DNA from: Chloroflexota bacterium
GTDB lineage: Bacteria > Chloroflexota > Anaerolineae > Promineifilales > Promineifilaceae
Reading direction: 5' to 3'
Length of the DNA stretch: 9,964 nt
Assembly: GCA_020353135.1 (NCBI GenBank)
Contig: CP070688.1
Span: 2,434,091-2,444,054 of the forward strand
The notes under the pieces were generated by a model that saw nothing but the letters and a program-made list of their open reading frames with translations, was not told where the DNA came from and ran no database searches. Below, one piece after another: positions 3,110 to 6,271 of the stretch (its first letter is position 1; every line of letters begins with the position of its first letter). The translations under genes and the position numbers were made by a program.

Positions 3110-4561
3110 CTAGCCCTTGATCACCGCTACTGGAACGATACGGGCCACCTTCTTAGCAATTCCCGCGCCATGTACAACTTCTACCACTCGGTCCACATCC
3201 TTGTAGGCCTGCGGCGCTTCTTCGGCCAGTCCGGGCATGCTGCCGGCCCTCACGTGAATGCCGGCCTGCTCCAGTTCGTCGCGCAGGTCGCCGCCCCAAA
3301 TGGTCTTTTTCGCCTTGCTACGACTCATTGTCCGGCCGGCCCCGTGACAGGTGGAGCCAAAGGTCTGAGCCATGGCGCCTTCGGTGCCCAGCAACACCCA
3401 ACTAGCGGTGCCCATCGATCCGGGCACCAGCACTGGTTGACCAATGTCGCGATAGACGTCAGGCAGGACCGGCGAGCCCGGTCCGAAGGCTCTGGTAGCG
3501 CCCTTGCGATGGACGCACACTTCCATCGGCCGCCCGTCGACGTCATGTTCTTCGATTTTGGCCATGTTGTGAGCGATATCGTATATCTGGTAGACGTGGG
3601 TGTTTTCCACCTTGCCGGTCAATGTCTGCTCAAAACTGCGGCGAATATGGTGGACCAAGACCTGGCGATTGGCGAAGGCATAATTGGCGGCCGCCTTCAT
3701 CGCTGCCAAATAGTCTTGACCTTCTGGACTGTTTAACGGGGCGCACACCAATTCTCGGTCGGGCAACTTGATGCCATAACGGCCGACAACCCGCTGAAAT
3801 CGCTTTACATAATCCGAACAGACCTGGTGGCCAAAGCCACGTGAACCACAGTGGATCTGGACCACAATCCGGCCGGGCGACAAGCCCATGCGGTCGGCCG
3901 CCGGGCTGTCAAATACCTGGTCGACCACGTCGACCTCGATGAAATGGTTGCCGGCCCCCAGGGTGCCCACTTGTTTTGCGCCGCGCTTCTTGGCCCGCGG
4001 GCTCACTTTGGTCGAATCGGCGCCATTGATACAACCGCCTTCCTCGGTCCGTTCCAGGTCGTTTGGAAACGCATAACCGCGGTCTAATGCCCAGCGAGCG
4101 CCTCGCTCAATTACCTGGTCCAGCTCGCCATGGCGCAGCTTTATGCTGCCACCCTTGCCCACACCGCTCGGGCAATTGGCATACAGTGCCGAGGCGACCT
4201 CATCCAGGTGCGGTTCGATCTCCGGCAGATCCAAGTGTGTGCCTAGCAGGCGAACGCCGCAATTAATGTCATAGCCCACCCCACCTGGCGAGATAACGCC
4301 CTCAGGCAGCTGGGTAGCGATCACACCGCCAATGGGGAAGCCATAGCCCTGGTGGATATCAGGCATGGCCAGCGCGTATTTCACCGCGCCGGGCAGCGTG
4401 GCTGTATTCACGAGCTGGCTCAGGCTCTTGTCTTCCTTGATCGCCGCCAGTAGCTCGGCATCGGCATAGAAGCGAGCCGGTACGCGCATATCCTCGCGGT
4501 AAGACTTTGGCACTTCGTACAGATAGGGGCTCAATCGTTTGAAATCAGCGCTGGTAACCAT
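3110..4561 (-). CDS. rtcB: RNA-splicing ligase RtcB (archaeal type)
   Basis: RtcB is a GTP- and Mn2+-dependent RNA ligase. It joins 2',3'-cyclic-phosphate or 3'-phosphate ends to 5'-OH ends in tRNA splicing and RNA repair. The 483 residues carry every catalytic feature I recall for Pyrococcus RtcB, at nearly the same numbering: D98 and C101 in GYDINCGVR, H206 in LGAGNHFIEV, H237 in QIHCGSRGFGHQ, H331 in YDIAHNMA, and the guanylylated histidine H406 in STCHGAGRTMSRSKA. The protein ends typically (VVEVVHGAGIAKKVARIVPV). ATG at 4561-4559 has a strong GGGAGGT ribosome site, and this site begins inside the archease stop codon region. The archease gene ends 13 bases upstream, which suggests tight coupling. 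The protein appears intact and active. Confidence 0.97.
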   Translation of the reverse strand: MVTSADFKRLSPYLYEVPKSYREDMRVPARFYADAELLAAIKEDKSLSQLVNTATLPGAVKYALAMPDIHQGYGFPIGGVIATQLPEGVISPGGVGYDINCGVRLLGTHLDLPEIEPHLDEVASALYANCPSGVGKGGSIKLRHGELDQVIERGARWALDRGYAFPNDLERTEEGGCINGADSTKVSPRAKKRGAKQVGTLGAGNHFIEVDVVDQVFDSPAADRMGLSPGRIVVQIHCGSRGFGHQVCSDYVKRFQRVVGRYGIKLPDRELVCAPLNSPEGQDYLAAMKAAANYAFANRQVLVHHIRRSFEQTLTGKVENTHVYQIYDIAHNMAKIEEHDVDGRPMEVCVHRKGATRAFGPGSPVLPDVYRDIGQPVLVPGSMGTASWVLLGTEGAMAQTFGSTCHGAGRTMSRSKAKKTIWGGDLRDELEQAGIHVRAGSMPGLAEEAPQAYKDVDRVVEVVHGAGIAKKVARIVPVAVIKG

Positions 4562-4571
4562 TGGCGGACCT
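4559..4571 (-). repeat. 13-bp repeat copy 1: ribosome site plus ATG of rtcB
   Basis: On the minus strand AGGTCCGCCAATG spans the ribosome-binding site and the rtcB start codon. The identical 13 bases recur at 5026-5038 in front of archease. Confidence 0.9.
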
Positions 4572-4574
4572 CCC

Positions 4575-5021
4575 TTATACGTCGAAGACGACGGTTACCG
4601 TATATCCTGTCTCGGTCTTCTGGATGGCCAGTTCGTTGTAGGTGACGGCTTTGATATGTTTCTCCAGGGCCGGCGGCCGGCCGCCACGGATACAGGCCTC
4701 AAGATGGTTGGGGCTGATATTGCGCAGTTGAAACTCGCGAAATACGAGGCCCTCATCTTCGGCCGCGTAGGCCAGTTCGCTGAGCCAGTCTACCAACAAT
4801 GTCTCGGCGTCAAAGGCATCTAGCTCCAGGTCACGTTCCACGCTCAGAGGCACGCTGTATAGATCGGATACCAACAACGCGGACATGCCCAGGGCGGCAT
4901 TCAGCAGCAGGTCGGATAGGCTGCCCCCATAGATGCGCAGAGCCCAGTCGGCCGTATGGTCGACGATTTCAAAACCACCGGCCGATTCGGAAAGCGCTGA
5001 TGGCTCGCTCAACTCTAGCAC
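4575..5021 (-). CDS. Archease, RtcB activator protein
   Basis: Archease is a small protein that promotes guanylylation and multiple turnover of RtcB. The 148-residue frame has the family hallmarks: GFEIVDHTADWALRIYG at 16-32, the central acidic and hydrophobic segment LLVDWLSELAYAAEDEGLVF (75-94), KAVTYNELAIQ at 124-134, and the C-terminal VVFDV with the conserved acidic residue. Stop TAA at 4577-4575 overlaps the rtcB ribosome site, so the two genes form one unit. The first plausible in-frame start is GTG at 5021-5019; no ATG precedes the DHTAD motif. GTG has no ribosome site at normal distance. A good site plus ATG (5028-5026) lies seven bases upstream but in another frame, so the start is uncertain. 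Confidence 0.93.
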   Translation of the reverse strand: MLELSEPSALSESAGGFEIVDHTADWALRIYGGSLSDLLLNAALGMSALLVSDLYSVPLSVERDLELDAFDAETLLVDWLSELAYAAEDEGLVFREFQLRNISPNHLEACIRGGRPPALEKHIKAVTYNELAIQKTETGYTVTVVFDV

Positions 5022-5025
5022 CTCG

Positions 5026-5038
5026 CATTGGCGGACCT
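5026..5038 (-). repeat. 13-bp repeat copy 2: ribosome site plus out-of-frame ATG before archease
   Basis: AGGTCCGCCAATG is identical to the rtcB initiation site at 4571-4559. The ATG here opens a 19-codon frame ending at TGA 4971-4969. That frame overlaps the first archease codons in a different frame. Confidence 0.85.
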
Positions 5039-5054
5039 ATCGGTCACTAGCTTA

Positions 5055-5178: not shown

Positions 5179-5207
5179 ATTGTAGCATGGCTGGCGACAC
5201 GTCTCAA
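5179..5207 (-). promoter_or_regulatory. sigma-70-type promoter for archease-rtcB(-comEA)
   Basis: On the minus strand TTGAGA (5207-5202) and TACAAT (5184-5179) are separated by exactly 17 bases. Transcription would start near 5172, leaving a leader of about 150 bases before the archease start. The promoter lies in the 240-base divergent region shared with the DUF3467-translin pair. I see no equally good plus-strand promoter there. Confidence 0.7.
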
Positions 5208-5219
5208 TTTACGGTAATC

Positions 5220-5233
5220 TTTGATCTATCAAA
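5220..5233. promoter_or_regulatory. Palindrome TTTGAT-CT-ATCAAA upstream of the DUF3467 gene
   Basis: Six-base inverted arms around two bases, 29 bases before the DUF3467 start and just upstream of the archease promoter. This is a plausible dimeric regulator site for the divergent pair, but there is no direct support. Confidence 0.3.
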
Positions 5234-5261
5234 TAAGCGCTTCTCGCATCTGAGGGATTCA

Positions 5262-5621
5262 ATGTCAGAGAAAGAACCAAAGCCCAAACCAACTCCTAAA
5301 CGGGTCGCCATCGAGCTACCAAAGGATCTTAAGGCCGTATACGCCAATGCGGCGCTCATCAGCCACTCACCGGCCGAGATAGTTATTGACTTCGCCCAGG
5401 TATTGCCGCGAACACCCAAGGGCGCCGTGATGAGCCGGATTGTCATGTCGCCCACCCATGCCAAGCTTTTGCAGCTTGCCCTGGCTCAGAACCTGACCAA
5501 CTATGAGCGTCAGTTCGGTGAGATCCGGCTGCCGCAGCAGAAGACGCTGGCCGATCAATTATTCAACTTTCAGCCGCCAGACGGACAGGGCGACGAAGAT
5601 GATTCGGATAAGGAGCAGTAG
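5262..5621 (+). CDS. DUF3467-family protein
   Basis: The protein has 119 residues and unknown function. The core reads VYANAALISHSPAEIVIDFA (26-45) and SRIVMSPTHAKLLQLALAQN (58-77), followed by YERQFGEI, the pattern of the DUF3467 family. A charged, proline-rich N-terminus (EKEPKPKPTPKR) and an acidic tail (DGQGDEDDSDKEQ) flank the core. The ATG at 5262 is chosen because a GAGGG ribosome site sits five bases upstream and homology begins just after it. The frame stays open further upstream to 5028, but that part is low-complexity, crosses the opposing promoter and has no good ribosome site. Stop TAG at 5619-5621 overlaps the next gene's GTG by one base, so the two are translationally coupled. 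There is no signal peptide or membrane segment; it is probably cytoplasmic. Confidence 0.85.
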   Translation: MSEKEPKPKPTPKRVAIELPKDLKAVYANAALISHSPAEIVIDFAQVLPRTPKGAVMSRIVMSPTHAKLLQLALAQNLTNYERQFGEIRLPQQKTLADQLFNFQPPDGQGDEDDSDKEQ

Positions 5622-6271
5622 TGGACAGAAATCGTCTTGACCATATCGCCGAAGAGATTCGCGACCAGTTTGAGATAGTCAACATGGCCCGCGATAATGC
5701 CTATCAGCAATCGCGGGCCCTGACCAGCGTTTGCGCCCGTTCTATCCGGGCCATACATCGGGAAGAGTGGGAATTGGCCGGCCGCTTACTGGCCGAAGCT
5801 AAGGAAGCAGCTAAGCGCCTGAGCGAAGGCGTGAAGCCATTCCCGAATCTTTATCACGCCGGCTACACCCAAGACGCCTTGAAGGAGTTTGTGGAAGCGA
5901 ACCTCACTTTGGCGCTGGTACGAAACAGGCCGCTGGCAAGCCCACAGGAGTTGAGCGTTGAGCAAAACACCTGGCTCAATGGCCTGGCCGAGGCGGCGAC
6001 CGAGCTGCGACGGCGCATATTGGATATCATACGTCACGGTCACAGCCAGGAAGCTGAGCGGCTGCTGGAGGAAATGGACGAAATTTACTCTGTGTTGGTC
6101 ACCTTCGACTTCAATGACTCCATCACCGGTGGCCTGCGCAGGCGGACCGACACCGTGCGCGCTGTGTTGGAGCGGACCCGGGGCGATGTGACTACTAGCC
6201 TGCGCCAGGCCGAGCTAGAAAGGGCCCTGCAGGCGCTCGAATCCAGGGTTGCGGAGAGCAAAACCGACTGA
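5621..6271 (+). CDS. Translin/TRAX-family RNA-binding protein
   Basis: The 216-residue, all-helical protein matches the translin family (COG2178 type). It has an N-terminal arginine-rich helix (ARSIRAIHREEWELAGRLLA), then HAGYTQDALKEFVEANLTLA (79-98), then LNGLAEAATELRRRILDIIR (119-138), and a C-terminal LRRRTDTVRAVLERTR. Eukaryotic translin and TRAX form C3PO, which binds RNA; TRAX cuts it with acidic residues. The EFVEA box (E89, E92) matches the TRAX glutamate box EYVEA. By my alignment the TRAX aspartate of its VYD motif corresponds to S157 (IYS), so nuclease activity is uncertain. Start GTG at 5621 overlaps the DUF3467 stop (TAGTG) and has AAGGAG five bases upstream inside that gene. The archease-rtcB unit is divergent to this pair. 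The gene ends 14 bases before the opposing membrane-protein gene. Confidence 0.88.
   Translation: MDRNRLDHIAEEIRDQFEIVNMARDNAYQQSRALTSVCARSIRAIHREEWELAGRLLAEAKEAAKRLSEGVKPFPNLYHAGYTQDALKEFVEANLTLALVRNRPLASPQELSVEQNTWLNGLAEAATELRRRILDIIRHGHSQEAERLLEEMDEIYSVLVTFDFNDSITGGLRRRTDTVRAVLERTRGDVTTSLRQAELERALQALESRVAESKTD

What the first reader, a model, noticed from the sequence alone, without database searches (positions are those of the whole stretch)
3110..6271. Translin-DUF3467 pair back-to-back with archease-RtcB: a possible bacterial RNA cleavage-and-sealing locus
Seen: an intact archaeal-type RtcB, its partner archease, and divergently a DUF3467 gene coupled (TAGTG overlap) to a translin-family gene, all sharing one 240-base regulatory region. 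Known: RtcB joins 2',3'-cyclic-phosphate or 3'-phosphate ends to 5'-OH ends; archease activates it; translin/TRAX binds and processes small RNAs and, in some eukaryotes, pre-tRNA fragments. Inference: translin may bind or cut RNA ends that RtcB repairs, with DUF3467 as an accessory subunit. Translin in bacteria is little studied, and the pairing with DUF3467 is not one I can explain from known systems.
Basis: partly seen in the sequence, partly recalled or inferred. Interest (0 to 1): 0.72.

Follow-up and report, generated by a model that had tools for sequence, protein, structure and literature searches.

The report
Bacterial TRAX-like gene with DUF3467 partner
In a group of poorly known bacteria, a gene for a relative of the animal RNA-cutting protein TRAX often sits with a small partner gene and a single-stranded-DNA-binding gene, while the RNA-sealing genes beside them in this genome look like ordinary neighbours.

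Summary
The genes are as described: complete RtcB and archease on the minus strand; divergently, DUF3467 overlapping (TAGTG) a translin-superfamily gene. The proposed cleave-and-seal locus is not supported. RtcB adjoins translin in 5 of 56 loci with enough upstream sequence, all in the window's own 17-row clade, and in 1 of 139 neighbourhoods drawn phylum-wide. In that clade rtcB-archease comes and goes between comEA and DUF3467, while DUF3467 and translin remain. The DUF3467-translin pair is real and widespread: 36 of 71 loci across the tree, 22 of 139 phylum-wide, 19 of these 22 with ssb upstream. The "translin" is TRAX-like: closest to archaeal C3PO, with four catalytic-site acids nearly invariant, one of them Glu for Asp. 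DUF3467 has no solved relative; its model weakly resembles COMM, PUR and PC4 folds. Translin-linked DUF3467s share a C-terminal LAxxLF motif (52 of 59 rows, against 2 of 22 unlinked). Most likely: a homo-oligomeric C3PO-type ribonuclease with a small adaptor, working near single-stranded DNA rather than feeding RtcB. Catalysis, complex and substrate are inferred.

The parts
5262..5621 (+). DUF3467 gene, 119 aa; ATG start (likeliest)
   Evidence: Pfam PF11950 E 3.3e-22; relatives' starts
5547..5564 (+). LADQLF motif (residues 96-101) in the DUF3467 C-terminal tail; modelled as a short helix; candidate docking peptide
   Evidence: LAxxLF-type motif in 52 of 59 translin-linked rows and 2 of 22 unlinked DUF3467s; helix 96-101 in the model
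5619..5623 (+). TAGTG: DUF3467 stop overlapping the translin GTG start
   Evidence: sequence; frames overlap or lie at most 10 nt apart in 27 of 36 first-set loci, starts being mechanical
5621..6271 (+). TRAX-like translin-superfamily gene, 216 aa
   Evidence: NF011160 E 6.7e-77; AfTRAX E 3.3e-18; a close relative's model fits archaeal C3PO
5885..5896 (+). E89 and E92 (ExxE) of the presumed catalytic site
   Evidence: 81 of 81 and 139 of 139 letters in the two alignments; same residues in the AfTRAX alignment
5990..6004 (+). E124 (Asp in archaeal C3PO) and E128 of the presumed catalytic site
   Evidence: E124 81 of 81 and 139 of 140; E128 81 of 81 and 140 of 140
5022..5261 (.). 240-base divergent intergenic region between archease and DUF3467
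   Evidence: one promoter-like site on the minus strand, 5207-5179, 10 of 12 matches (consensus match only)
4575..5021 (-). archease gene (neighbour, not judged part of the unit)
3110..4561 (-). rtcB gene (neighbour, not judged part of the unit)

Best explanation
The unit is DUF3467 plus the translin-superfamily gene, without RtcB. The translin-superfamily protein is a TRAX-like, homo-oligomeric ribonuclease of the archaeal C3PO kind. DUF3467 is a small, probably dimeric nucleic-acid-binding adaptor made from the same mRNA; its C-terminal LADQLF tail may dock on the RNase or on SSB. In Anaerolineae the pair is most often encoded behind an SSB with the standard acidic tip, in many loci ahead of DNA-repair genes, so it most likely trims RNA at or near single-stranded DNA (R-loops, RNA left in gaps, RNA at stalled transcription). 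Shown here: gene identities, recurrence of the pair, the ssb context, the C3PO fold of a close relative, the conserved acids, the motif correlation. Inferred: catalysis, oligomeric state, the complex, nucleic-acid binding by DUF3467, and the substrate.
For: DUF3467 just upstream on the same strand in 36 of 71 loci with at least 900 nt upstream, across the tree, and in 22 of 139 second-set neighbourhoods, 19 of these 22 with ssb upstream. Genome-level association of DUF3467 with translin: 38 of 44 DUF3467 genomes against 101 of 207 others (no correction for kinship). Cas4-like, NAD kinase and RecN genes in 23, 19 and 18 of 81 first-set loci (labels checked on one example each). All 54 linked SSB rows scored (53 loci, one in both sets) end in IPF or LPF. 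C3PO fold: TMt 0.88-0.92 to AfC3PO and NeC3PO, 0.61-0.76 to eukaryotic translin and TRAX chains listed. Acids conserved. LAxxLF tail in 52 of 59 linked rows against 2 of 22 unlinked. DUF3467s away from translin lie beside radC (3), a zinc-ribbon protein with an RNase H-like gene (2, and the zinc-ribbon protein alone in a third), ssb (1) and ribonucleotide reductase (1), 8 of 20 loci (L276 and L290 labelled by eye).
Confidence: 0.48

Rival explanations
1. One reading: translin binds or cuts RNA ends that archease-activated RtcB reseals, with DUF3467 as accessory; the four genes form one RNA repair locus with shared control.
For: Divergent adjacency in window, L001, L006, L010, L016; rtcB and DUF3467-translin stay within a few kb in L266 despite a different order; genome-level co-occurrence of translin and RtcB, 107 of 139 against 57 of 112.
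Against: Adjacency confined to one clade and to 1 of 139 second-set loci. In clade members G260, G261, G262, G265 and G269 comEA lies next to DUF3467 with no rtcB-archease between; in G270 the block comEA-rtcB-archease-DUF3467 stands without translin. TRAX-type cleavage is not known to me to leave ends made for RtcB (recalled).
Confidence: 0.1
2. tRNA-maturation RNase: the protein removes pre-tRNA fragments or surveys tRNA, as reported for Neurospora C3PO (recalled), independent of both RtcB and SSB.
For: Archaeal TRAX-SepRS operons, often with endonuclease V (passages of PMC5424206 and PMC8762117); 7 of 139 neighbourhoods share an upstream gene that in the one example scanned is AlaX-like; RtcB co-occurrence.
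Against: Commonest partner of the DUF3467-linked form is ssb, not a tRNA gene.
Confidence: 0.2
3. General short-RNA scavenging RNase with no fixed pathway; DUF3467 is a housekeeping protein that happens to be linked to it in Anaerolineae.
For: Translin in 139 of 251 genomes with many different neighbours; DUF3467 widespread without translin beside it, e.g. three genes after rpoC and just before rpsL in two Bacteroidales records; the two genes separate in at least six clade genomes.
Against: Close spacing in 27 of 36 loci; linked-form tail motif; ssb-DUF3467-translin order across deep branches.
Confidence: 0.22

Closest known systems
Archaeal C3PO / TRAX (AfC3PO 3zc0, 3zc1; NeC3PO 5jr9, 5jrc, 5jre)
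   Same: Same fold over about 185 residues (model of the close relative L016, TMt 0.88-0.92); single TRAX-type subunit; ExxE and the last Glu conserved
   Different: The Asp of the site is Glu in 220 of 221 alignment rows (window row counted twice, one locus in both sets); often encoded with DUF3467 and ssb, not seen with SepRS/EndoV
Eukaryotic C3PO (translin plus TRAX hetero-octamer)
   Same: Same superfamily and fold, TMt 0.61-0.76
   Different: No separate second subunit as a rule: of 138 genomes with a confirmed gene, one (G069) has two loci and one (G112) a weak partial second match
DUF3467 of Bacteroidota (no known function)
   Same: 42-45% identity over part of the protein in three records; in a Parabacteroides record third gene after rpoC, in a Bacteroides record directly before rpsL
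   Different: No LAxxLF tail in the two checked; no translin annotated within about 6 kb
PUR-alpha, PC4/Sub1 and MRP1/2 single-stranded nucleic-acid-binding folds
   Same: DUF3467 model is beta-beta-beta-alpha; 20 of the 29 best rows are PUR (8), PC4/Sub1 (9) or MRP (3)
RtcB-archease RNA ligase
   Same: Complete neighbours in the window
   Different: Not conserved as neighbours of translin outside one clade

Membership tests
C3PO/TRAX ribonuclease | Translin-superfamily fold | tested here: met
   L016 relative's model: TMt 0.88-0.92, rmsd 1.4-1.7 A to AfC3PO and NeC3PO; window protein to AfTRAX E 3.3e-18
C3PO/TRAX ribonuclease | Four catalytic-site acids (human E123, E126, D193, E197; numbering recalled except E197) | tested here: inconclusive
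   E89, E92, E128 invariant; the Asp position is Glu (E124) in 81 of 81 and 139 of 140 rows. Correspondence seen against AfTRAX and NEQ131, not shown against human TRAX. Whether Glu works there is untested
C3PO/TRAX ribonuclease | Octameric barrel with RNA inside | not testable with these tools
   only single chains can be modelled
C3PO/TRAX ribonuclease | RNase activity | not testable with these tools
   needs purified protein
DUF3467 (PF11950) | Pfam model match over cut-off | tested here: met
   78.8 bits against cut-off 25
PUR/PC4-like ssNA-binding fold | Fold match clearly above unrelated folds | tested here: inconclusive
PUR/PC4-like ssNA-binding fold | Binding of single-stranded nucleic acid | not testable with these tools
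   needs binding assay
RtcB RNA repair locus | Complete RtcB and archease | tested here: met
   active-site residues judged only from recalled motifs
RtcB RNA repair locus | Conserved linkage of RtcB with the proposed RNA-cutting partner | tested here: not met
   5 of 56 loci, one clade; 1 of 139 in the second set

The most novel reading that the evidence does not exclude
DUF3467 is a PC4/PUR-like adaptor that, through its LADQLF tail, tethers a homo-octameric TRAX RNase to SSB-coated DNA, forming a prokaryotic machine that clears RNA from single-stranded DNA gaps and R-loops; translin's long-debated DNA role in eukaryotes would then descend from such an RNase.
Probability: 0.15. Interest if true: 0.78.

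Novelty: new variant of a known kind. Interest (0 to 1): 0.48.

Why it matters
Whether translin/TRAX proteins act mainly on RNA, on DNA or on both is debated (abstracts listed, passages). A recurring bacterial unit in which a TRAX-type protein is encoded with an SSB and a small partner offers a simple two- or three-protein system in which the question can be tested, and gives a first functional lead for DUF3467, a family of unknown function. In the held open-access library no paper has both translin and DUF3467, and only one has DUF3467 at all (listing only).

Tried and rejected
Rejected: RtcB coupling as the function (see rivals). Rejected: natural translin fusions; of the 12 longest frames read (up to 862 aa) none showed a recognisable extra domain except one (L226) in which a run of N joins translin to a UbiA-like frame. 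Anti-phage defence: no PADLOC match for four proteins; pattern scans of viral contigs found no relative of translin or of the window's DUF3467, which close-relative patterns can miss; DUF3467 does match one PHROG of unknown function and one unannotated phage record. No plasmid record matched translin. No solved structure matches DUF3467 by sequence; in Foldseek PURA ranked first but at E 0.32, level with a phage capsid. The tethered DUF3467-translin prediction gave no usable interface evidence (only pTM and pLDDT are returned). Contexts in archaea and Thermus could not be inspected: translin rings in three archaeal controls and DUF3467 in Thermus, Bacteroides and Methanosarcina controls, but no DNA is given for controls. 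The window's own genome is not held. Two C3PO papers are not held and were not read. Literature searches for the pairing.
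Full report
What is there. RtcB (3110-4561, minus) is complete and aligns over nearly its whole length with Pyrococcus RtcB. Archease (4575-5021, minus) matches Pfam and solved archeases. DUF3467 (likeliest 5262-5621, plus) and a translin-superfamily gene (5621-6271, plus) overlap by TAGTG. The translin gene matches no Pfam-A model; its NCBIfam match is a family named 'haloacid dehalogenase superfamily protein', below that family's cut-off, and relatives are named haloacid dehalogenase or translin by different sources. 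The nearest solved protein by sequence is Archaeoglobus TRAX. The protein search lists an identical protein on a 4.46 Mb contig, and relatives at about 80% identity named Promineifilaceae; no whole genome is held for the window.

Neighbourhoods, first set. A scan of one-per-species genomes found 81 relatives and kept 80 loci; 78 record titles name Chloroflexota or groups within it, one Bacteroidetes and one only 'bacterium'. With the window, 81 loci were mapped. rtcB is beside the pair in five: window, L001, L006, L010, L016. DUF3467 lies upstream on the same strand in 36 of 73 loci with at least 500 nt upstream; in 27 of the 36 the frames overlap or are at most 10 nt apart, in the others the gap runs up to 561 nt (mechanical starts). 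An ssb gene was found in 33 loci, 32 of them upstream on the same strand. A Cas4-like nuclease is in 23 loci, NAD kinase in 19 and RecN in 18 (each label checked by Pfam on one example).

On a translin tree, scored only where enough sequence is held, rtcB (5 of 56 loci) lies wholly within a 17-row clade (SH-aLRT 99) that holds the window. comEA (8 of 56) and a small membrane protein (12 of 75) are found only in the same clade, so rtcB adjacency is no stronger than background synteny. DUF3467 adjacency (36 of 71) and ssb (26 of 62) spread over the tree, with at least 10 and 5 changes. This was a quick tree with 26 of 78 inner branches open, and many rows are MAG contigs.

Neighbourhoods, second set. 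In 251 Chloroflexota genomes drawn evenly, translin was found in 139, DUF3467 in 44 and RtcB in 164. I fetched 140 translin stretches from these 139 genomes; one (L275, a broken partial match) showed no translin with my profile, leaving 139 loci from 138 genomes. DUF3467 is upstream in 22, ssb upstream in 22 (19 with both), a Cas4-like gene in 7, NAD kinase in 2, RecN in 2, rtcB in 1. 128 of the 139 have at least 1000 nt upstream and 108 at least 4000 nt on both sides, so the counts are lower bounds. One locus is in both sets (L028 and L203). The one rtcB case (L266) has a different order: archease, rtcB and a glycosyltransferase convergent with translin and DUF3467. Genome-level co-occurrence, uncorrected for kinship: DUF3467 with translin 38 of 44 against 101 of 207; RtcB with translin 107 of 139 against 57 of 112. 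Other recurrent translin neighbours in the phylum include pyrophosphatase (23 loci), UbiA (18) and an AlaX-like protein (7), each label from one scanned example.

The window's clade in detail. Searches traced rtcB and DUF3467 in clade genomes. Archaeal-type rtcB with archease sits between comEA and DUF3467 in the window, L001, L006, L010, L016, G264 and G270. In G260, G261, G262, G265 and G269 comEA is next to DUF3467 with no rtcB-archease between; G006 looks the same, comEA there being recognised by eye. Of 16 genomes searched for RtcB (15 of the clade's loci and G151), seven have the archaeal type, seven only a divergent RtcB (E 1e-64 to 1e-87), and G261 and G267 none (MAGs, so absence is weak). 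Translin is away from DUF3467 in G006, G261, G262, G265, G270 and G271, yet both genes remain. So the RtcB pair, DUF3467 and translin separate freely. DUF3467 was found in 10 of 10 clade genomes, and in the three clade genomes (G004, G005, G006).

The translin-superfamily protein. E89, E92 and E128 are invariant, and E124 is Glu in 81 of 81 and 139 of 140 rows. In AfTRAX the E124 position is Asp, and the sequence of the construct solved with duplex RNA has Ala there, which fits a catalytic role. The S. pombe paper states that of the TRAX catalytic residues only E197 is kept in translin (passages of PMC9246224). The bacterial protein is therefore TRAX-like rather than translin-like, with one Asp-to-Glu change whose effect is unknown. 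A model of a close relative (L016, made as a tethered DUF3467-translin chain, mean pLDDT 90.6) matches archaeal C3PO at TMt 0.88-0.92 and the eukaryotic chains listed at 0.61-0.76. The tethered model gave no evidence of contact between the two proteins.

SSB. The linked SSBs end in IPF or LPF in 54 of 54 rows scored, the usual partner-recruiting tip (recalled). Twelve genomes checked have 1 to 6 SSB matches; in the eight where an ssb is linked to translin it is never the best-scoring one.

Judgement. The DUF3467-TRAX pair is a genuine recurring unit; I found it in no paper of the held open-access library. Translin-superfamily proteins in bacteria are already described (Gupta et al. 2012, seen only as a title in a reference list). 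Archaeal TRAX is operonic with SepRS, often with endonuclease V (passages of PMC5424206 and PMC8762117). I favour an RNase working near single-stranded DNA at 0.48, a general scavenger at 0.22, a tRNA role at 0.2 and RtcB coupling at 0.1.

Noticed in passing
window 1-2073: Open frame of 690 aa cut by the window edge: family 5 solute-binding domain (residues 240-606) behind an N-terminal part with no Pfam match that looks to me like an ATPase/TPR regulator; an odd pairing.
   Followed up: partly
window 5621-6271 and relatives: Translin-superfamily proteins are named haloacid dehalogenase in NCBI records and by the NCBIfam PRK14562 models: probable misannotation that hides the family.
   Followed up: partly
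L024:8645-8887 and L046:1958-2497: Downstream of translin in many Anaerolineales loci a Cas4-like nuclease appears split: an 80-aa frame with no Pfam match that looks like a Cas4 N-terminus, then a frame with a leading hydrophobic stretch and Cas4 and PD-(D/E)XK matches.
   Followed up: partly
L284, L285, L288: DUF3467 directly upstream of radC in three Chloroflexota loci.
   Followed up: partly
L281, L282, L290: DUF3467 followed by a CT398-like zinc-ribbon protein (L281, L282 by Pfam, L290 by eye), with an RNase H-like gene after it in L281 (Pfam) and L290 (by eye).
   Followed up: partly
window 6286-6693 minus: Small membrane protein with no Pfam family, beside translin in 12 of 81 loci, all in the window's clade.
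   Followed up: no
window 2270-2344 minus: tRNA-Asp gene beyond comEA; its linkage to the pair in relatives was not examined.
   Followed up: no
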